A stretch of DNA of 64,000 nucleotides from Rhodothermales bacterium (lineage in GTDB: Bacteria; Bacteroidota; Rhodothermia; Rhodothermales; Bin80), in NCBI GenBank assembly GCA_951812585.1, contig OX638318.1, forward strand, positions 1,144,819 to 1,208,818, in the 5' to 3' direction. The notes below the pieces were generated by a model. The model ran no database searches and was not told the DNA's origin. It worked only from the letters and a program-made list of their open reading frames with translations. Below, in pieces: positions 17,665-28,422 of the stretch (the stretch's first letter is position 1; each line of letters starts with the position of its first letter). A program made the translations under genes and the position numbers.

Positions 17665-19059
17665 ATGCCAACCATAGGAACGGAAGAAGCGCCCTTGCGC
17701 GTAGCGATCATTGGGGCGGGGCCGGCGGGATTCTACGCAGCGGGGCACCTCTTCAGACAGAAAACTTGTCGTGTGGAGGTGGACATGTACGACAAGCTGC
17801 CGACGCCTTTTGGACTCGTGCGGTGCGGCGTGGCACCCGACCACCAGAAGATCAAGAACGTTACCCGCGTCTATACCAAAACGGCCGCGCATGCCGGCTT
17901 CCGCTTCTTCGGCAACGTGGAATACGGCCGGCACATCGCTCTCGATCAGCTCAAAGCGCACTATCACCAGATCTACTTCTCGACGGGTGCGCAGGTGGAC
18001 CGGCGATTGAACATCCCGGGCGAAGACCTACAGCGCAGCTACTCCGCAACAGACTTTGTGGCCTGGTACAACGGGCATCCGGAATACCGCCACCTGGAGT
18101 TTGACCTCTCGCGCCCGTGTGTAGCCGTCATCGGCGTAGGCAATGTGGCCGTGGATGTTTGCCGCATCCTCTGCCGCACCATCGACGAACTGGCGACTAC
18201 GGACATTGCCGACTACGCGCTCGAAGCACTGCGCGAAAGCAAGATCCGCAAGGTCTACATGCTGGGCCGCCGGGGACCGGCACAAGCCGCGTTCACCAAC
18301 CCGGAAGCCAAGGAACTTGGCGCACTGCCCGGCGCCGACATCCATGTGCCGCCGGATGAAGCCGTTCTGGATGCATGCACCCTGGCAGACCTTGGAGAGA
18401 AGCCCGATCGCATGACCGCAAAGAAGATCGGCCTGATTCAGGACTTTTCAACCCGCGCGCGTACCGGCAAGGACAGGCTGCTGACCATACGCTTTTTGGT
18501 GTCACCGATTGCGCTGCACGATGATGGCACAGGCCAGGTGGGGGGCGTGCGACTCGTGAAAAATGAGCTGTACGCCACAAGCGATGGACGGCTGCGGCCA
18601 CGGGCAACGGATTCGATAGAGGAACTGCCCGCCGAAGTCGTCTTTCGGTCTGTGGGCTACCGCGGCGTCGCGCTTGCGGGCCTGCCCTTCAATGACCGCT
18701 GGGGTGTGGTAAGCAGCGTGCAGGGACGCGTCATGGACGGGGACACGTCCCTGCACGGCGTGTATGTGGGCGGCTGGATCAAGCGCGGCCCGACCGGCGT
18801 CATAGGCACCAACAAGTCGGATGCGCTGGAAACGGTCAATGCCATGATGGCGGACCTCAACAGCGATTGCCACCTTGATCCTGCACACCCGAGCGCCGAA
18901 GCGGCGGCCGACATGGTACGTCGGTGCCAGCCCAACTACGTGTCCTGGGAGGACTGGAAACAGATTGACGCCCAGGAAATAGCGCGCGGCAAGCCGCTGG
19001 GACGGCCGCGGGTGAAGTTTGTATCAACCCGCGAAGTCCTGGCAATGCTGGGGCGTTAG
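17665..19059 (+). CDS. fprA: Ferredoxin-NADP+ reductase, FprA (adrenodoxin reductase) type
   Basis: A 464-residue flavoprotein matching mycobacterial FprA and mitochondrial adrenodoxin reductase in length and motifs. The FAD-binding GAGPAGFYAAGHL lies near residues 17-29, followed by the family-specific YDKLPTPFGLVRCGVAPDHQ, the NADP-binding GVGNVAVDVCRIL, and the C-terminal GWIKRGPTGVIGTNKSDA. It should move electrons between NADP(H) and ferredoxin; a 7Fe-type ferredoxin gene at 37600 could be a partner. It stands alone, divergent from the cupin gene, and its stop overlaps that of the convergent caspase-fold gene. Confidence 0.95.
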   Translation: MPTIGTEEAPLRVAIIGAGPAGFYAAGHLFRQKTCRVEVDMYDKLPTPFGLVRCGVAPDHQKIKNVTRVYTKTAAHAGFRFFGNVEYGRHIALDQLKAHYHQIYFSTGAQVDRRLNIPGEDLQRSYSATDFVAWYNGHPEYRHLEFDLSRPCVAVIGVGNVAVDVCRILCRTIDELATTDIADYALEALRESKIRKVYMLGRRGPAQAAFTNPEAKELGALPGADIHVPPDEAVLDACTLADLGEKPDRMTAKKIGLIQDFSTRARTGKDRLLTIRFLVSPIALHDDGTGQVGGVRLVKNELYATSDGRLRPRATDSIEELPAEVVFRSVGYRGVALAGLPFNDRWGVVSSVQGRVMDGDTSLHGVYVGGWIKRGPTGVIGTNKSDALETVNAMMADLNSDCHLDPAHPSAEAAADMVRRCQPNYVSWEDWKQIDAQEIARGKPLGRPRVKFVSTREVLAMLGR

Positions 19060-20057
19060 CGCATTTCGCGTTCGCGGTCCATGCTGTTGTTGAGCCGCGC
19101 AAGGCGCAGCATCAACACTTCGAGCTCGGCGTAATAGTTGTCCGGATTCATGGCGGCTTTGCGCGCCTTCAGCGCTGCGATCTCGCGCTCTATCGCTTCC
19201 TTGCTCTGCAGCATGGTCGCCATGCGGGCGGTGACACCTTCCGCGGAAGGCCGCCGCAAGAACGTGATCGCCGCCAGGTGCCCGTCAGGGCTTTCGCGCA
19301 GCTGCTCCAGCCGGGCGCCATCACCATCGCCGGAGTCGTCCAGGAGCGCGTGCTCCGTGGCCAGATAGCCATGGTCCTCAAAGTACCCCTGGGTTCGCTG
19401 GGCCGCATACCTGAACACCTCCAGCATGGACAGGCTGCCATCGTGGTCAAGATCCGCCGACGGATTCGCTAGCGCCTCGACCAGAAAGCGTGGGAATATG
19501 GTCTGGTTGCGCTGTGTGCCACTGCGCGTCGCCGTAATCACAACCCGCTCGGTTGCGCTGAGGGCTGGGACGAATGGTCCGCTAGCGCTGGCCGTGTTGA
19601 TGAACACCAGGCGTCCCGCCTGAATCGTGTCCAACAACTGCGCATAATCCGCACTGGTGAGGTCCCGCCGCGCAATGTTGAGCACGGCATCCGTGCCGTC
19701 AAAGCTGCCGTGGCCAAAGAGCACAACGTAGAGATGGTCTTCCGGCGTAACCTCCGCCTTGAGGTCTGCAAAGGCCTGCCGAATGCGCTCCGCGTTGGCA
19801 ATGCCGTCCACAACAGATTCTTCAACGATTGCAGGTTCTCCAAGCACTGTGACCCGACTGCCGTCCAGGCCCAGTGGACCGGTAAAGGCCGCATGCGCAT
19901 CAAAGAGGTACTGCCGGATGGCGCTGGTATACGCTTCGGATCCGCCCAGCCCGCCGATAAGCAGCGCATACTGATCCTGCGCAGCGCCGGGCAGCGGCAC
20001 CAGCGCCGCGAAAGCTAAGGCAAGCCTTGCCGCCGCCGATACATCCATTCTGCGCAC
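19056..20057 (-). CDS. Exported caspase-fold (C13-like) protein lacking the catalytic Cys
   Basis: A 333-residue protein from a GTG at 20057 (an ATG at 20048 is the alternative) with a signal peptide (LALAFAALVPLPGAAQ). The body has the clan-CD pattern: YALLIGGLGG, then the His motif VVLFGHGSFDG (His116). The next strand, where the Cys should follow, reads VFINTASASG: Ala/Ser at residues 156-159 and no cysteine. A perfect 12-residue EF-hand loop (DLDHDGSLSMLE, 202-213) follows, then a C-terminal coiled coil. I infer a non-proteolytic, perhaps calcium-responsive protein. It is the last gene of the VWA operon and overlaps the previous gene by 43 bp. Confidence 0.72.
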   Translation of the reverse strand: MRRMDVSAAARLALAFAALVPLPGAAQDQYALLIGGLGGSEAYTSAIRQYLFDAHAAFTGPLGLDGSRVTVLGEPAIVEESVVDGIANAERIRQAFADLKAEVTPEDHLYVVLFGHGSFDGTDAVLNIARRDLTSADYAQLLDTIQAGRLVFINTASASGPFVPALSATERVVITATRSGTQRNQTIFPRFLVEALANPSADLDHDGSLSMLEVFRYAAQRTQGYFEDHGYLATEHALLDDSGDGDGARLEQLRESPDGHLAAITFLRRPSAEGVTARMATMLQSKEAIEREIAALKARKAAMNPDNYYAELEVLMLRLARLNNSMDREREMR

Positions 20058-22297
20058 AAGAGAAGAATCGCAAGGATAAAGAGCGCGGGCATGTCCCAGA
20101 GGTATTCCGCATGAAACACCGAAGTGCTCGTGCGCCGTCCGCGCAGGTTTGTCACCACATCACCAGCCTCTATCGGTGTATAATAGTAGCCTGCCGCTTC
20201 CGCCAAACGCTCCAGCATCGCCCGCTTAAGCGTAGCGTCGTAGAACTCCGAATGATCGGGCCGCGCCAGCACGCTGCGCTGCCCATGACCGATCACCGCG
20301 TCATCACGGCTGGCTGTCACGTCCAGCGCGTAAAGCCCTTCGACTTCCGGCGCAAACCGCGCGGTGTAGGTACCCGCATGGGCCAGTTCCTCATCAAAGC
20401 GCAGCGGCATAGCACCGCCATCGGGACCGACCAGAAGGCCCTCCACCGCTGCGCCTTCCAGCGCATCGTATTCCTGGTCGTACAGGTTGACACGCAGCAG
20501 CGCTTCTTTGCCAACCCCGATATGGCCCTGCCCAACATCGATGTCAACCGGTGCCGGCGCGGAGGCAGCCAGCCATCGCGCCAGTTGCTGCCAGAACCGT
20601 TCGTGCCGGTAGTCGGATGCGTCGAGCAGCATCTGCCAGCGCCATGTGCTGCTGGTGGCCAGGGCGGCGGCACGCCCCTTGCCGTAGCGCTGCACAATGA
20701 GGAGCGGCTCCGCCTTGCCGTACTGGTCTAGTGGCTTCCGCGCTAGCACCTGCGCCCCGGCTTTGGGAGCGCCCAGATAGTTGATGCTTGTCAAGAGCGG
20801 CATGCCGCTCCACAATCCGCGGTTGATCAAGGGCTCGGGCGAGAGCTTCAGTATCGGACTCTCCAGGCCCGCTTCCGTAGGCTCGAAGGCAAAACCTTCG
20901 GGCTCCTCGCTGGCCGTGCGTGGATCGGTAAAACGCTCCGGCACGATCTGAACCCGCGATGCGTCCAGATAGACGGGCAGCATGTCCGCAATAGGGCTGG
21001 TGACGTATACGCCCTCCGCGAAGGTCTGCCGCCCGCCCATCATGAGGAAGCCGCCGCCGCGCACGCGCACAAAGGACTCGATGAGGCGCAGCTGCGACGG
21101 CGAAAACGCCGAGGCTTCAACGTCGCCAAAGATGAGCGCGTCAAAGGCATAGAGGTCCCCCGGATCGCTCGGAAACCCGCCCGCAAGCTCGTCGGGACTG
21201 CGGATACCCTGGCGGTACAGCTTTCCGGTCCCTGTACGCGCAATCGATGTGAAGTCCACCACCTGGTCGTCTTCCAGCGCGCGTTTGATAAACTTGAAGT
21301 CCTGCCGGAGATGCCCCTCAAAATAGAGCACGCGCAGCGTATCCGTACGCGCGTCCACCAGCATGGAAAGTGCATTGTTGGCCGTGTTAATCTCACCGGG
21401 TGCCTCTTCGATGGCTAGGCGGTACGCATGCGCACCATCCATTGGGGGCTCAAAGAAGAGGCTTATCTGATCAATCTTGCCCGCGCCCTTCAGCGTCTGC
21501 TCTTCGCTGAAGACCAGAACATCGCCCGCATAAATGCTCAGCGTCACGGGGTCAGACTCCGGGCCCCAGCTGCGCACCTTCACGTCTATCTCCGCGCCCG
21601 CACGCTTGCCTACGCCCTTGCTTACCATCACGTCCATCACCTCTCGCTCCGACGCAAATGACTCCTGCCCGAGCCCGATAACGTGTAGCCCGATGCCAAG
21701 GGCGCGAAGCTCTTCCGCCTTGGCGATAGGGGCCTGTGCGGTGTTGTCTGCACCATCGGTAAAAAGCACGATCCCTGTCAAAGGCAGCCCCCGAAAGTCG
21801 CTCATCACGCGGTCCAGCCCGGCGCTGATGTCGGTCCCGGTGCCACGCGCGACCGCCGGCAATGAATCCAGCCGCCTCGCACGGTCATCAAACGCATAAA
21901 GCCGCACTTGAAAATCCTCTTCCATAGCCGCCATGATGCCTGCACCGTCCGCGTGAAGCACGGCTTGTGCCTGCGCAAGACGGGTCACTCCCCCCGGCGC
22001 ATCCGCTACCGACATGCTGCCGGACACATCCACCAGGACCGCAACAAAATTCTCGTTGGGCACAACGGTCGGCGTCACCAGGGCCGGCTCGAACAGCGGC
22101 CACGCGAGAAGCGCGGCGGCCAACAGGCGCAGCCCCAGCGACACCATACGCACGCGCGGCGGTGCATCGCTCCGAAACACCAGGAAAGCCACCACCGCAG
22201 TCAGACCCGCCAGCACCAATAGCGCCGGCAGCAGCTGAATGCTCACCACACCTTCCGAGTACTGCAGCGGGCTGAACTTGAACAGGCGTTCAATCAT
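20015..22297 (-). CDS. Membrane protein with VWA and GATase1-like domains
   Basis: A 760-residue protein. Two N-terminal helices (residues 21-41 and 52-69) precede a von Willebrand factor A domain with a complete-looking MIDAS start, DVSGS at 90-94 in VAVLVDVSGSMSVAD. After an immunoglobulin-like region comes a class-I glutamine-amidotransferase-like fold (GGGFLMMGGRQTFAEGVY), which has no nucleophilic Cys in the usual place. A final helix ends LLCAEWMYRRRQ. This arrangement is typical of Bacteroidota and planctomycete VWA operons. It sits between DUF4175 (8 bp away) and the caspase-fold gene. Its role is unknown; periplasmic metal-dependent protein binding is inferred. Confidence 0.85.
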   Translation of the reverse strand: MIERLFKFSPLQYSEGVVSIQLLPALLVLAGLTAVVAFLVFRSDAPPRVRMVSLGLRLLAAALLAWPLFEPALVTPTVVPNENFVAVLVDVSGSMSVADAPGGVTRLAQAQAVLHADGAGIMAAMEEDFQVRLYAFDDRARRLDSLPAVARGTGTDISAGLDRVMSDFRGLPLTGIVLFTDGADNTAQAPIAKAEELRALGIGLHVIGLGQESFASEREVMDVMVSKGVGKRAGAEIDVKVRSWGPESDPVTLSIYAGDVLVFSEEQTLKGAGKIDQISLFFEPPMDGAHAYRLAIEEAPGEINTANNALSMLVDARTDTLRVLYFEGHLRQDFKFIKRALEDDQVVDFTSIARTGTGKLYRQGIRSPDELAGGFPSDPGDLYAFDALIFGDVEASAFSPSQLRLIESFVRVRGGGFLMMGGRQTFAEGVYVTSPIADMLPVYLDASRVQIVPERFTDPRTASEEPEGFAFEPTEAGLESPILKLSPEPLINRGLWSGMPLLTSINYLGAPKAGAQVLARKPLDQYGKAEPLLIVQRYGKGRAAALATSSTWRWQMLLDASDYRHERFWQQLARWLAASAPAPVDIDVGQGHIGVGKEALLRVNLYDQEYDALEGAAVEGLLVGPDGGAMPLRFDEELAHAGTYTARFAPEVEGLYALDVTASRDDAVIGHGQRSVLARPDHSEFYDATLKRAMLERLAEAAGYYYTPIEAGDVVTNLRGRRTSTSVFHAEYLWDMPALFILAILLLCAEWMYRRRQGLP

Positions 22298-22305
22298 GCC
22301 GGCCC

Positions 22306-25300
22306 CTACTGGCGCGACAGCGACTCATAGTACTTCTCCACAATGCTCGAATACTCGGTCGGCACTTCCCCGCGCCGGCTGCCGTAGAGCCGCGCTTCCA
22401 TCTGCACCAGATCCAGCGCGCGTGCGATTTGCGCCTCCAGCTGGTTGAGCGCGTCGTACACATCGCGTTCAAAAAAGGCGTTGGCCGACTCCTCATCCAG
22501 GAGCACGCCCGTATGGTCGGCGCGCGACAGCGCATTCTGTACGCCCGCAAGCGCTTGCGCAGTCGCATCGCTCCCGCGTCCCATCAGCTCCTGAAGCTGC
22601 GCCTGTGCCCTTCCAAGCTGGCTGCGCAGGCGCGCTTCCAGGCTTCGGTTGTCATCCTGCGGATCACTGGCGCGCAAACGCTCAGCGTCGGATTCCAACG
22701 CCCGCAGCTGATCCTGCAGCGCTTGCACCTCGCGCAGCGCGGCGGCCAGCGCCTCTTCCTCTGTCACCGGCAAAGACGCAGCCAATGCCCGGCGGACTGC
22801 TTCGAGGCCCCTCAGATCGTTCAAGATCTCGTCTTCCAGGCGCCGTGCACTATCCAGCCAGCCGTTGCGAAGCGCCCGATATGAGGTGGCCATGTCGCCT
22901 GCCAGGTCGTCGCGCTGCATCTGCTGCACAAGGTTGCGCAGGTTGGCCGTCATCTCCGGGTCTTGGCTCTGGGCCTCCATGCGCATAGCTTCTTCGACGG
23001 CCTGGTGCAGCGCGTCCATCTGCGCAAGGCGGTCTTCATCCAGGCGGCGCATCGCTTCCTCATCGGGGCGCGTCCCCTGGGCCATAACCGTGTCCAAATC
23101 CTGCGCAAACACACGCTCGCGTGCGGCCAGATCCTCAAGGTCTTCGGTTAGCGCCCGCAGCTGTTCACGCCGCGACCCGCGCGCCGCCCGCTGCATATCC
23201 GGTTGGAGCTGCTCCAGATCCTGCAGCGCCTGCCGCTGGCGCTGCATGGCTTCGTCCAAGTTGTCTCGGCGTAATGCGCGGTCTGCCTCCCGCATGTTGC
23301 GGAGTGCGCTCGCCATGCGCCCCTGGGCGTCTTCCTGGCGGCCCGCCTGCATACGCTGCGCTACCTGCTCCAGCTGCGTGCGCACCTCTTCCTGGTCCCT
23401 GCGCAGCTTGTCCACAAACCGCTTTCGGTCTTCGCCCTGCAGGTCTTGCGGACGCTGCAAGTCCGCCAGGTCCTGCTGGCGCCGCGCCAGATCTTTCACT
23501 TGGCGCAGCGCCTCATCGATGGCCTGGGTCTCTTGTGCGCGTTGCTGCTGGACTTCGTACTTATCCTTGGAAATGTCCAGTTCCAGATCCATCAGCTCAG
23601 ACATGCGCTCTTCCGTCGCAGACGCACCACCGCCGCCGGGGCGCTGCTGCTGCTGCGCGACCTGGTTTTCCTTGTTTTGCGCATCCGCACGGAGCAGAGC
23701 CGTCAGCGCCACGCGCTCGGGCGGCAGTGCCTCGCGCAACCGATCCTCTTCCAGCGCCTCCACCGCTTTGGCCATGCTCCCGACGGCCTCCTGCAGGTAG
23801 TGCACCGTCTGCTGCAGCATCTCGTTACCGCGCAGCTCCAGGGAAAACGCAGTTGATTGTATCCGTTCTTCTATGCTGCGCTTAAGATTCGCTTGCGCAC
23901 CGGCCAAGGCCTGAAGCGCACCCGCGTAGTCTTCGTGCGTATCACGCTCCCGCATCAGTCGCCATGTGGCGGCTATAATCTCCTGCTGACTGACCACCAT
24001 ACCGCTCTGCTGCGCGCCGCCCTGGCCGCCCGCGGCAGCCGAGACCTGCGTATAGGTCTGGTCGAAGGGAATCACCTCGATGAAGTACATGTCCGTCACC
24101 GCACGCTGGGTGGCATCCTGCGCCTCCAGGTAGTAGGTGATCACATCGCCTGGCTGAAGGCTGTAGTCCTCCAGGAAGAGCAGGTGCTCTCCAGCGCCAT
24201 GCAGCCCTGCAGGCTGGTCCAAAAGGGCCACGGATTGCTCTGCGCCGCCGCCCACAAAGAACACCAGCTGGAAATCCTTTACGCCGTAGTCGTCATCGAC
24301 ATCGGCGGCGATGAGGACTTCTTCAATGGCATTGGCGCGAACATCGCGGCCGGGATCGTGCATCGTGATGTGCGGCGCACGATCAGGCACGGGCATGATG
24401 GCGTACTGGACAGGAAACTGGTTCCGCTTGCCGTTGGCGTCTGTGAGCCGGAGCGTGTACAGGTCCTCCTCTTCCAGTGTGATCCGCCCGGTAAACTGCC
24501 CCTCGCTTTGCGCCTTCAGGGCTATCGTACCACCGCTTTCCAGCACCATCTCAGCTTGTACGGGCACACCCGTCGTACGAACGGTTAGCTGCACCTCCGA
24601 GCCTTTCAGTCCGTGTATGTCCCCTGCGTCTGCTTCCACTACGGGCGGCAAGGCAATATGGCTTGGATAGTGATAGGCAAGGTCGATCTGATCGACTGCG
24701 GGAAACTCATACACCGCAATCCTGAACAGCGCGGACCGATGCTTGCCTGCCTCCACGTAATAGTCGATGGGCGCCTGGATGCTGGAGAATTCGGCCAAAA
24801 ATGCCGTGCCTTCGCTTCCCGGCTCCATGGCTTTGCGTATCCAGTCCTTGCCCTCCTCCTGGTAGACGAGGTAGACAGCATCGCTGGTGCCTTCGCGCAG
24901 CTCCGCCACTACGGACTGGGATTCGCCCTTTTCGATCTCCACATTTCCAGGCACAATGGTCATAAGCGGCCGCACAGCGGCCAGACTGCTGGAAGCGACC
25001 AGGCGAACCTTGTCCAGGTTCATGACCCCGAACACCAGGAGCAGGGCTGCCAGCACGGTGCCTGCCCCAGCCATGATGCGCGCCCGCACCTTTCGTACCA
25101 GGTCACCGGGCACAATACCCCTGATCATCCGGGCTGTGTCGGCCAAAAGTCCCGACAGCATGATGTCCGCACCCGCTACATGCTGGGCTTTGGCTTCAAC
25201 CGCGCTGTTCAGCCGATCTTCAAGCCCCGGTGCCTGCTCTTCGATGTACATCGCGATCTGCTCATCGCTTATCTGACGACGAAGGGGCCGGATCACATAG

Positions 25301-25518
25301 TGGAATGTGGCAGCAGCCGTGATGACCAGCGCAGCGCTCACGGCAACGTAGAGCAGCAGGGCCTGATCGTACACCAGGGGATAGAGCAGAATGAGCGCCA
25401 CAGCGGACGAAAACAGTGCAATCAGCGCCACGGCGCTTCCTTGCAGCAGGGCGCGGCGCCGCACCCCGCGACGAACCGCACGGATGAGGCGCCGGAGATG
25501 CATTTGGGCAGCTTCCAT
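22306..25518 (-). CDS. DUF4175-family membrane protein with long coiled coil
   Basis: A 1070-residue protein matching DUF4175 by architecture. There is a helical start (RRLIRAVRRGVRRRALLQGS), two transmembrane helices at about 27-46 and 53-72, a short cytosolic segment with MYIEEQAPGLEDRLNSAVE, and a third helix near 150-170. Beta-sandwich periplasmic repeats cover about 190-480, followed by roughly 550 residues of Q/R/E-rich coiled coil (for example LRDQEEV-like and RQRQALQDLEQLQPDMQ). Function is unknown. It is co-transcribed with BatA/VWA (3 bp upstream) and VWA/GATase (8 bp downstream), so it probably scaffolds a VWA complex in the envelope. Confidence 0.85.
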   Translation of the reverse strand: MEAAQMHLRRLIRAVRRGVRRRALLQGSAVALIALFSSAVALILLYPLVYDQALLLYVAVSAALVITAAATFHYVIRPLRRQISDEQIAMYIEEQAPGLEDRLNSAVEAKAQHVAGADIMLSGLLADTARMIRGIVPGDLVRKVRARIMAGAGTVLAALLLVFGVMNLDKVRLVASSSLAAVRPLMTIVPGNVEIEKGESQSVVAELREGTSDAVYLVYQEEGKDWIRKAMEPGSEGTAFLAEFSSIQAPIDYYVEAGKHRSALFRIAVYEFPAVDQIDLAYHYPSHIALPPVVEADAGDIHGLKGSEVQLTVRTTGVPVQAEMVLESGGTIALKAQSEGQFTGRITLEEEDLYTLRLTDANGKRNQFPVQYAIMPVPDRAPHITMHDPGRDVRANAIEEVLIAADVDDDYGVKDFQLVFFVGGGAEQSVALLDQPAGLHGAGEHLLFLEDYSLQPGDVITYYLEAQDATQRAVTDMYFIEVIPFDQTYTQVSAAAGGQGGAQQSGMVVSQQEIIAATWRLMRERDTHEDYAGALQALAGAQANLKRSIEERIQSTAFSLELRGNEMLQQTVHYLQEAVGSMAKAVEALEEDRLREALPPERVALTALLRADAQNKENQVAQQQQRPGGGGASATEERMSELMDLELDISKDKYEVQQQRAQETQAIDEALRQVKDLARRQQDLADLQRPQDLQGEDRKRFVDKLRRDQEEVRTQLEQVAQRMQAGRQEDAQGRMASALRNMREADRALRRDNLDEAMQRQRQALQDLEQLQPDMQRAARGSRREQLRALTEDLEDLAARERVFAQDLDTVMAQGTRPDEEAMRRLDEDRLAQMDALHQAVEEAMRMEAQSQDPEMTANLRNLVQQMQRDDLAGDMATSYRALRNGWLDSARRLEDEILNDLRGLEAVRRALAASLPVTEEEALAAALREVQALQDQLRALESDAERLRASDPQDDNRSLEARLRSQLGRAQAQLQELMGRGSDATAQALAGVQNALSRADHTGVLLDEESANAFFERDVYDALNQLEAQIARALDLVQMEARLYGSRRGEVPTEYSSIVEKYYESLSRQ

Positions 25519-25521
25519 GAA

Positions 25522-27519
25522 TTACGGTTGGGTTCGGTTGCGATGGGCGAGCAGGGTTTCCAGCACGAAAAGTCCCAGTACCGCCAGAATGGCAAAGCGC
25601 CACAGCTTGAGTTCCTGCTCTCTTTCCTCGTCGGTGTACGCGGCCGCCTGCGGCGCAGCTGTCCCGCCGCGCCCGCTTGCGATGGCGGCATACGTTTCCT
25701 CCGCGCCGCGCATGGTGAGGTCTGACTCGCGTGGATCTGCGTTGACAGAGAAATAATACGCATCATCGCGCAGCGCTGCCACATAGTGGCCCGGAGACGC
25801 TGTTTCCATAAAGAAGCCGGTCTCCGACGTATCCATGGCTACCTTGTACTGTTCAGAGGTCGGTGTCCCCACATCCCAGACGGCCCCGGCCGCGCCGGTG
25901 AGCGGAACTTTGTCTCCTACTATAAACGCCCGCTTCCGCTCCCGCAGCGCAGCGGCGTAGTTCACCATCTGATAAACGAGCGGCACAAAGAGTTCGTGCA
26001 GGGCCAGGTTCGACCAAGAGGTCCCGAAGCTGGACGTAAAGGCCAGTATGGCTCCCTTGCCCATGCGCCGCTCTATCAGCAGCGGGTCGCCGTTATCGTA
26101 GCGGGCGAGGACTGCAGCCCCTGCCTGCGGTACCACATGCACATAGGTGCGAAACTTCGGCCGGATGAGTGCGCTGGATCCCGCCAGGCCCGCAAAGATT
26201 TCATGCTGTGCATCGACCTGCCCGACAAAGGCCTCCGCGCCACCCGCGTCTTGGGCGCGCACGATGCTGGTCACCTGGCCGATACCTGTTTGGTCGAGCC
26301 CATAGCCGGTCTCTGCCAGTGCATCGCCAAAGGACAGCACGACGCAGCCGCCACCTTCGGCGAAACTCCGCAGGGCTGCAGCCTGCGCCGGCGTGAGGCG
26401 CGCCGTATTGGCTGCAAAGACGACATCGTGCCGAACAAATGCGGCGCCGGCAAGGCGCTGTCCGCGCGCGAAGTCAAACTGCGACTGCTCGGCCAGGTCG
26501 AAGGCGCTTCGCAGGTAGAAGGCATCGCGATCATCGGCCACCACCAGAATCGAAGGCCGTGCCGCCACCTCGTAGGTGAAGTAGTAGCGGTTGTCCGCAA
26601 GCAGCGCGTCGCTCTCGGTCGAAAGGTACCCCTGGTACAATCCGGGGCGCGGTGCCAGATGGTGAAACGCCACCCGCCCCCGCCCGGCGGTGGTGGATTC
26701 CTTCTGGTCCATGATGCGATCCTCAATGACCATGCTGATGGCATCGCCGCGCGCCTCAGTCACATAGCGGGCATCAAGGCGTGTGACCATACCTTCGCTC
26801 CGCTGTCGCATCGTCCGCGCGACATCTTCAAAGTACCGATTGGCCTGCTCTTCCGGTCCGACCTTGATGGGCTCAAACGTCACGCCGTCGGGTAGGGTGT
26901 ACTCGTCCATGGAGGCCGTAAATCCTGTGCGCTGCATATCCGAAATCAGCACCACGCGCTGCGCCGAGTGGCGCGCTTCCAAAAGGATGTCTTCGGCCAG
27001 TTGAAATGCAGGATAGAAGTCTGTCGCAAGGCTGCTCGCACGCAGGGCCGTGGCAGAGGCTTCAAGGCGCTGCCGGTCTCTGCTGAGCGGCGCCAGCTGC
27101 ACCGCTTCGCGGCTGAAGCCTACCAACGCCAGCTCATCTCCTGCAGACGATGCCGCAATGACCCGCCGGAGGGCATTCAGGGCCTCGTCAAAGGTGTCGC
27201 CGGCCTGCATGCTGAGCGACTGATCCACGAGGATCACGACGGATTCGTCCTTACGCTCGGGCACAAACGGCAGGCGCTCCCGCACGAGGAAGGGACGCGC
27301 GAAGGCCGCAGCCAGGAGTACGATCATGGCCATGCGGAGCACGAGCAGCAGGACATCGCGGAGCTTGCGGCGGCGTATGCGCTCCATGGGCGTGGCCGTA
27401 AGGAACATCAGTGAACTGAACGGCAGCTCCTTCGCCCTCATGCGGCGAACCAGGTGCAAAAGCACGGGCACCAGTGCTACGCCCGCGGCGGCTAGAAAGA
27501 GCGGCGTAAGAAATGACAC
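25522..27519 (-). CDS. BatA-type VWA membrane protein
   Basis: A 665-residue protein beginning with the BatA N-terminal domain: a first helix (LFLAAAGVALVPVLLHLVRR) and a second (VLLLVLRMAMIVLLAAAFAR), with the conserved LPFSSLMFL between them. A VWA domain follows with MIDAS start VVILVDQSLSMQAG (D-x-S-x-S). The C-terminal half is a GATase1-like/beta-rich region and a last helix near 640-660. It lies 3 bp after DUF58 and 3 bp before DUF4175. In related operons a MoxR AAA+ ATPase accompanies these proteins; none is seen here. Confidence 0.87.
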   Translation of the reverse strand: MSFLTPLFLAAAGVALVPVLLHLVRRMRAKELPFSSLMFLTATPMERIRRRKLRDVLLLVLRMAMIVLLAAAFARPFLVRERLPFVPERKDESVVILVDQSLSMQAGDTFDEALNALRRVIAASSAGDELALVGFSREAVQLAPLSRDRQRLEASATALRASSLATDFYPAFQLAEDILLEARHSAQRVVLISDMQRTGFTASMDEYTLPDGVTFEPIKVGPEEQANRYFEDVARTMRQRSEGMVTRLDARYVTEARGDAISMVIEDRIMDQKESTTAGRGRVAFHHLAPRPGLYQGYLSTESDALLADNRYYFTYEVAARPSILVVADDRDAFYLRSAFDLAEQSQFDFARGQRLAGAAFVRHDVVFAANTARLTPAQAAALRSFAEGGGCVVLSFGDALAETGYGLDQTGIGQVTSIVRAQDAGGAEAFVGQVDAQHEIFAGLAGSSALIRPKFRTYVHVVPQAGAAVLARYDNGDPLLIERRMGKGAILAFTSSFGTSWSNLALHELFVPLVYQMVNYAAALRERKRAFIVGDKVPLTGAAGAVWDVGTPTSEQYKVAMDTSETGFFMETASPGHYVAALRDDAYYFSVNADPRESDLTMRGAEETYAAIASGRGGTAAPQAAAYTDEEREQELKLWRFAILAVLGLFVLETLLAHRNRTQP

Positions 27520-27522
27520 GAC

Positions 27523-28422
27523 TCAGGTATGACGCCTGCCACGGGCGGCTAAGTATTCAAACAGCGCCCCATCCAGCGGCTGATCTGTGGTGATCAGCGT
27601 ATAGTCAATGCCGAGAAGCCCGCATGCACGCGCAATGCGATGCTGGAAGCGCTTAAAATTCTCTTGGTACAAGGCGCGAGCGCTCTTGCCTTCGACGAGT
27701 AGCTTTGCGCCGGTTTCGATGTCCTTGACATGCATGATGTCGTCAAAGTCAAAGGCGACTTCCTGCGGATCCAGCACATGAAAAATGAGGACTTCATGCC
27801 CGCTGAAGCGAAAGTGGCGCAGGGCATCAATAAGCTGGTCGGCATCCGAGAGCAGATCGCTTACCAGAACGATGAAGCCGCGTCGCTGCTGTTGCTCTGC
27901 GATGGTGTGCAGCGGCTTGTCAAAGGAGGTGGCGGCCCCCAGCGAGCGGTTGTCCAGCGCGGTCAGGAGGGTTTGCAAGTGGCCTTTGCTGCTGCGCGGG
28001 GGCAGGCTTTGCCGGATTTCGTCGTCAAAGAGCACGAGTCCGGCCGCATCGCGTTGCCGCACGGCCAGGTAGGCCAACGAAGCGATCAGATAGGTGGCAT
28101 AATCCAGCTTTGTCACCTCGTGAGATTGGTAGCCCATGGATCGGCTGGCGTCCAGCACCAGGTGCACGCGCGTGTTGGTTTCGCCTTCGAACTCCTTTAC
28201 GAGGTACCGGTCAGTGCGCGCATACACCTTCCAGTCCACGCGCCGCAGGTCGTCACCCGGCACGTAGGGGCGGTACTGCATGAAGTCCACGCTGAACCCT
28301 TTGTACGGGCTGCGGTGAAGTCCGGCAATAAAACCCTCTACCACGGCACGCGCCAAGAGCTCCAGACCCGAGAGGCGCGCCAGGACATGAGGCAGGATAA
28401 ATCGTGTCGCGGCCTGGGGCAT
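27523..28422 (-). CDS. DUF58-family protein
   Basis: A 299-residue protein with the DUF58 core motif RPYVPGDDLRRVDWKVYART near residues 51-70, then a VWA-like fold starting at VHLVLDASRSMGY. Family members are usually partners of MoxR ATPases and Bat-type VWA proteins. It is soluble as predicted, with no membrane helix. It is the first of five tightly packed genes; a 30-bp gap separates it from the upstream propeller gene. Confidence 0.92.
   Translation of the reverse strand: MPQAATRFILPHVLARLSGLELLARAVVEGFIAGLHRSPYKGFSVDFMQYRPYVPGDDLRRVDWKVYARTDRYLVKEFEGETNTRVHLVLDASRSMGYQSHEVTKLDYATYLIASLAYLAVRQRDAAGLVLFDDEIRQSLPPRSSKGHLQTLLTALDNRSLGAATSFDKPLHTIAEQQQRRGFIVLVSDLLSDADQLIDALRHFRFSGHEVLIFHVLDPQEVAFDFDDIMHVKDIETGAKLLVEGKSARALYQENFKRFQHRIARACGLLGIDYTLITTDQPLDGALFEYLAARGRRHT

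What the first reader, a model, noticed from the sequence alone, without database searches (positions are those of the whole stretch)
19056..20057. Caspase-fold gene with the catalytic Cys replaced and an EF-hand added
The His motif is intact (GHGS, His116), but the position after the next strand reads NTASASG, without cysteine. A perfect EF-hand loop (202-213) and a coiled-coil tail follow. In the context of two VWA proteins, which also bind divalent metal, a non-proteolytic, calcium-gated adaptor is an attractive possibility.
Basis: partly seen in the sequence, partly recalled or inferred. Interest (0 to 1): 0.65.

Follow-up and report, generated by a model that had tools for sequence, protein, structure and literature searches.

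The report
Caspase-like envelope protein lacking catalytic cysteine
A secreted bacterial protein with the fold of caspases and legumain lacks the cysteine those enzymes cut with, as do all 25 family members examined, yet the dead active site is still its most conserved part and the gene always travels with a set of envelope genes, which suggests that it now binds rather than cuts.

Summary
The gene (best start ATG 20048, stop 19056, minus strand; Rhodothermales, Bacteroidota) encodes an exported clan-CD (caspase/legumain-fold) protein with His113 intact and no cysteine anywhere. The nucleophile position, fixed by alignment to intact C13 (SACYSGGF) and C14 (DSCFSGGF) relatives, is Ser154. In 25 family sequences (24 Rhodothermales, 1 Gemmatimonadota) this position is Ser in 23, Pro in 2, never Cys; His113 is 25/25. 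AlphaFold gives a confident caspase/legumain fold (pLDDT 86.7; best PDB match legumain, E 1.7e-8). The EF-hand ligands are invariant, but the EF-hand was not 'added': intact relatives carry an EF-like loop at the same place. The gene follows a VWA/pseudo-GATase gene in a DUF58-BatA-DUF4175 module; orthologues of this gene, the VWA gene and the DUF4175 gene occur in exactly the same 25 of 114 genomes. The dead active-site cleft is more conserved (85%) than the rest of the core (60%). Best reading: a non-proteolytic envelope subunit that uses its former substrate cleft as a binding site, with Ca2+ as a probable structural ion. Calcium gating and VWA binding are untested. Inactive caspase homologues are known; this is an unnamed C13-like lineage of them.

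The parts
19056..20048 (-). Cys-less clan-CD (C13/C14-like) pseudopeptidase gene, 330 aa, ATG start
   Evidence: GTG at 20057 is a possible but less supported start
19977..20048 (-). N-terminal signal peptide (residues 1-24, ...LALAFAALVPLPGAAQ)
   Evidence: sequence; hydrophobic helix 5-15 followed by a low-confidence stretch; inferred, no predictor run
19710..19712 (-). His113 of GHGS, the clan-CD catalytic His position
   Evidence: 25/25 in the family
19587..19589 (-). Ser154, at the position of the clan-CD catalytic Cys
   Evidence: S 23/25, P 2/25, C 0/25; aligned with the C of SACYSGGF by hhalign and with C14 DSCFSGGF
19419..19454 (-). EF-hand loop, residues 199-210 DLDHDGSLSMLE
   Evidence: D199, D201, S207, E210 25/25; position 203 D/N/S
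19311..19340 (-). Second conserved acidic loop, residues 237-246 DDSGDGDGAR (possible second metal site)
   Evidence: D238 25/25, D241 24/25; metal binding inferred
19062..19244 (-). C-terminal two-helix hairpin, residues 269-329
   Evidence: AF2 secondary structure; column identity 53% against 85% for the cleft
20015..22297 (-). VWA + GATase1-like membrane protein; its 3' end overlaps the pseudopeptidase gene by 34 bp
   Evidence: Pfam GATase1_like 6.9e-11, VWA_2 4.9e-4; only Cys is 748, outside the GATase-like domain; orthologue in exactly the genomes that have the pseudopeptidase
22306..25518 (-). DUF4175 protein
   Evidence: Pfam 1e-9; orthologue in the same 25 genomes
25522..27519 (-). 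BatA/VWA protein
   Evidence: Pfam VWA_2 5.4e-17, BatA 1.5e-14
27523..28422 (-). DUF58 protein
   Evidence: Pfam 1.9e-48

Best explanation
It is an exported pseudopeptidase of clan CD (caspase/legumain fold, nearest to C13 by sequence and structure) and a fixed component of a DUF58-BatA-DUF4175-VWA envelope module. Shown: fold prediction, His kept, Cys absent in the whole family, invariant EF-hand ligands, identical genomic distribution with the module's VWA-GATase and DUF4175 genes. Inferred: it does not cut; its former substrate cleft (loops 111-118, 124-130, 151-159, 172-186), still the most conserved region, now binds a peptide segment or small ligand, possibly from a module partner; the EF-hand, inherited from active relatives, holds Ca2+ as a structural or mildly regulatory ion; the helical hairpin docks to a membrane partner such as the VWA-GATase protein whose gene it overlaps.
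For: Cys 0/25, Ser 23, Pro 2 at position 154; His113 25/25; EF ligands 25/25. AF2 pLDDT 86.7 with His after beta-3 and the Cys position after beta-4. Foldseek: legumain E 1.7e-8, MALT1, metacaspases, GPI transamidase complex chain. Cleft loops 85% conserved against 60% for the rest of the core; of 241 circular shifts of the mask only one reaches that value, the unshifted one. Module genes co-occur in exactly the same 25 of 114 genomes, also in Roseithermus where the VWA gene lies 18 kb away (Fisher p 1e-25, phylogeny not corrected). The same pairing, with Cys absent, is present in Gemmatirosa.
Against: No biochemistry; no interaction was modelled. The Ser that replaces Cys is strongly kept (23/25) and His is invariant, which a purely structural role does not demand. 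Co-occurrence applies to the whole module and does not single out the VWA protein as partner. A conserved cleft can also mean an unusual catalytic activity.
Confidence: 0.55

Rival explanations
1. A Ser-based enzyme: Ser154 with His113 acts as a serine nucleophile dyad (hydrolase or transamidase) in place of Cys.
For: His113 25/25 and Ser154 23/25; the cleft is the most conserved region.
Against: Two homologues have Pro154 (L030 in G018, and Roseithermus L034/L060) while keeping His and the rest of the cleft. To my knowledge no active clan-CD serine peptidase has been described.
Confidence: 0.15
2. A metal-dependent scaffold: Ca2+ on the EF-hand (and perhaps the second acidic loop) switches binding to the VWA proteins.
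For: EF ligands invariant in 25/25, second acidic loop D238 25/25 and D241 24/25; VWA genes adjacent.
Against: Cys-bearing C13/C14 relatives have an EF-like loop at the same place, so it is more likely an inherited structural site than a gate evolved for this module.
Confidence: 0.15
3. Cys loss is only a by-product of low cysteine in this organism's envelope proteins and the protein is a relic without a specific cleft function.
For: The protein has no Cys at all, and the DUF4175 neighbour has none.
Against: Nine close relatives carry a Cys three residues away, at 151, so Cys is tolerated; cleft residues are conserved far above the rest; Cys-bearing exported C14 proteins occur in the same order.
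Confidence: 0.1

Closest known systems
Peptidase family C13 (legumain, GPI8/PIG-K; Pfam PF01650)
   Same: Caspase/haemoglobinase fold; His after beta-3; catalytic-loop context x-[C/S]-x-S-G; best Foldseek hits; nearest Pfam family (E 2.8e-4).
   Different: Catalytic Cys absent; score below Pfam's gathering cut-off (21.0 against 22.8 bits).
Pseudo-orthocaspases and pseudo-metacaspases (C14 homologues with substituted dyad; PMC6426788, PMC3501461)
   Same: Presumed inactive clan-CD fold with Cys replaced by Ser; PMC3501461 reports that Ser is the commonest replacement of Cys.
   Different: Those surveys used the C14 p20 domain, which finds no match in this genome. Here His is kept, and the family is C13-like and tied to a VWA module. 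PMC6426788 counts only 10 pseudo-variants among 1078 Bacteroidetes sequences.
MoxR/Bat (aerotolerance) and cmdA-D envelope operons (described in PMC5700661)
   Same: DUF58, BatA-type VWA, further VWA proteins; in Roseithermus and Gemmatirosa also MoxR, TPR and DUF4159.
   Different: The window's copy has no MoxR gene beside it; a clan-CD pseudopeptidase and a DUF4175 protein are part of the cluster; no function measured here.

Membership tests
Peptidase C13 (PF01650) | Pfam gathering score | tested here: not met
   21.0 bits against 22.8, residues 103-179 only
Peptidase C13 (PF01650) | His-Cys catalytic dyad | tested here: not met
   His113 present, Cys replaced by Ser/Pro in 25/25
Peptidase C13 (PF01650) | Caspase/haemoglobinase fold nearest to legumain | tested here: met
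   AF2 and Foldseek, legumain E 1.7e-8, prob 1.00; TM 0.60 by target length to legumain 4n6o
Peptidase C14 / orthocaspase (PF00656) | C14 profile match | tested here: not met
   no PF00656 match in the whole genome, none in hmmscan
Pseudopeptidase of clan CD (descriptive class) | clan-CD fold with substituted catalytic residue, conserved in orthologues | tested here: met
Pseudopeptidase of clan CD (descriptive class) | no proteolytic activity | not testable with these tools
   needs biochemistry
EF-hand | 12-residue loop ligands D1, D3, D/N/S5, S9, E12 | tested here: met
   25/25 at 1, 3, 9, 12
EF-hand | binds Ca2+ | not testable with these tools
   needs a binding assay
Bat/MoxR envelope module | MoxR ATPase gene in the same cluster | tested here: not met
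   in this genome the three MoxR-type matches lie outside the window; MoxR is in the clusters of Roseithermus, Gemmatirosa and G022
Bat/MoxR envelope module | DUF58 and BatA-type VWA genes contiguous | tested here: met

The most novel reading that the evidence does not exclude
A previously unnamed, ancient family (Rhodothermales and Gemmatimonadota) in which a legumain/caspase-type enzyme was converted into the peptide-binding subunit of a VWA envelope machine, a non-catalytic use of the clan-CD fold in the bacterial envelope.
Probability: 0.4. Interest if true: 0.65.

Novelty: new variant of a known kind. Interest (0 to 1): 0.45.

Why it matters
Bat/MoxR-type VWA modules are found in several phyla and tied to envelope integrity and stress, but how they work is unknown. 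A dead protease with a preserved cleft, fixed in one such module, offers a concrete handle: find what the cleft binds. It also shows clan-CD pseudopeptidases outside the C14 surveys that defined pseudo-orthocaspases.

Tried and rejected
EF-hand as a derived addition: rejected, because Cys-bearing relatives have an EF-like loop at the same position. Another Cys as nucleophile: rejected; the only Cys column (151) is confined to one clade of 9 and is Asn/Asp elsewhere. Ser154 as obligatory nucleophile: weakened by Pro154 in two homologues. Phage or defence origin: no match in viral contigs, PHROGs or PADLOC. Sequence search of the PDB with the single protein gave only chance hits; with the profile, a weak metacaspase-4 match (E 0.0019). 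Papers on C13 pseudopeptidases: none held.

Full report
Observation. The open reading frame 19056-20057 on the minus strand is real. Homologues begin at the codon matching the ATG at 20048, so I number from there: 330 residues, an N-terminal export signal ending ...GAAQ, FGHGS with His113, and FINTASASGPF after the next core strand. The protein has no cysteine at all. The loop 199-210, DLDHDGSLSMLE, is a canonical EF-hand. The gene overlaps the end of the upstream VWA/GATase-like gene by 34 bases.

Family. Searches of the family, order and class found orthologues in 25 Rhodothermales genomes. Elsewhere in the phylum sample there were only weak matches to part of the profile (E 7e-6 or worse). 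A more distant orthologue lies on a Gemmatirosa kalamazoonensis replicon (Gemmatimonadota, 39% identity), beside the same VWA gene. In an alignment of 25 distinct sequences His113 is 25/25; position 154 is Ser in 23, Pro in 2, Cys in none; Ser156 is 25/25; D199, D201, S207 and E210 are 25/25. The only cysteine column in the mature proteins is 151, in one clade of nine; the others have Asn or Asp there.

Which residue is the lost nucleophile. Profile alignment to a Cys-bearing C13 peptidase encoded on a Pseudomonas plasmid sets TASASGPF against SACYSGGF, so Ser154 is the nucleophile position. The C14 caspases of the same order (L041/L082 DSCFSGGF, L086 DACFSGGF) align the same way. Pfam calls the Pseudomonas and L089 proteins C13 and the L082 protein C14, whereas the window protein reaches only 21.0 bits for C13 (cut-off 22.8) and has no NCBIfam match.

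EF-hand. The intact relatives continue, after the catalytic loop, into DEDGDGSVSSFE (L082), DEDHNGAVTPLE (L086) and DLNSDGRVTMEE (L089) at the aligned position. The EF-like loop therefore most likely predates the loss of Cys and was not added to a dead enzyme. A second acidic loop, 237-246, is also conserved (D238 25/25, D241 24/25); that it binds metal is inferred.

Structure. AlphaFold2 on 16 aligned sequences gives mean pLDDT 86.7 and pTM 0.75, with His113 after strand 105-111 and Ser154 after strand 146-151, followed by the EF-hand and a two-helix hairpin 269-329. Foldseek against the PDB returns legumain zymogens (E 1.7e-8), MALT1, type I and II metacaspases and a GPI transamidase chain, all with probability 1.00. 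TM-scores by query length stay below 0.5, probably in part because the hairpin and tail have no counterpart; against the legumain peptidase domain 4n6o the score by target length is 0.60.

Context. In this genome the order is DUF58, BatA/VWA, DUF4175, VWA-GATase, pseudopeptidase. Of 17 named genome loci, 16 have the VWA-GATase gene directly upstream; the exception is Roseithermus, where it lies 18 kb away in the same genome. Roseithermus, Gemmatirosa and G022 have MoxR and DUF4159 genes in the cluster, and the first two also a TPR gene. The full-length VWA-GATase orthologue (over 700 bits) and the DUF4175 orthologue (over 600 bits) each occur in exactly the 25 genomes of the 114 in the order that have the pseudopeptidase. 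Fisher's test gives 1e-25, without correction for shared ancestry; absences inside families f1 (G007, G008), f3 (G017), f4 (G019) and f5 (G021, G023, G024) suggest that gain or loss happened more than once. This marks the module as a unit; it does not prove that the VWA protein is the binding partner.

Conservation of the cleft. The four loops around the former active site average 85% column identity, the EF-hand 80%, the second acidic loop 79%, the rest of the core 60% and the hairpin 53%. Sliding the cleft mask around the core reaches the observed value in 1 of 241 positions, the true one. A dead enzyme whose cleft is its most conserved part most simply uses the cleft for binding. A serine-based activity is the main rival; Pro154 in two homologues speaks against it as a family-wide mechanism.

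Known systems. Inactive caspase homologues with Ser for Cys are documented in bacteria (PMC3501461: 84% of putative bacterial metacaspases keep the dyad, and Ser is the commonest replacement of Cys; PMC6426788: 858 of 9,994 orthocaspases are pseudo-variants, 10 of 1078 in Bacteroidetes). PMC3501461 also notes that the single Gemmatimonadetes metacaspase it found lacks an intact dyad; whether it is this family I could not check. Bat/MoxR modules affect aerotolerance or envelope integrity in other bacteria, with no settled mechanism (PMC5700661). The combination here, a C13-like pseudopeptidase as a constant part of such a module, I did not find described in the papers held; that search was limited.

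Limits. All functional steps (no cutting, Ca2+ binding, partner) are inferred. Bacteroidota were searched by whole genome; other phyla only through one degenerate-pattern scan and the plasmid collection.

Noticed in passing
L103:8826-11193 (G011, contig 3): A second, degraded copy of the VWA-GATase plus pseudopeptidase pair, split by frameshifts and stops, about 10 kb from the intact pair.
   Followed up: partly
L092:11660-12001 (Gemmatirosa): The N-terminal part of the Gemmatirosa homologue is in a different frame from the rest: a frameshift or sequencing error.
   Followed up: no
window 20015-22297: The GATase1-like domain of the VWA protein has no cysteine (its only Cys, 748, is near the C-terminus), so it too lacks the usual GATase nucleophile: two enzyme folds without nucleophile in adjacent genes.
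   Followed up: partly
L030 and L034/L060: The two homologues with Pro instead of Ser at the nucleophile position come from different families of the order; the tree leaves their branching unresolved, so one origin or two is open.
   Followed up: partly
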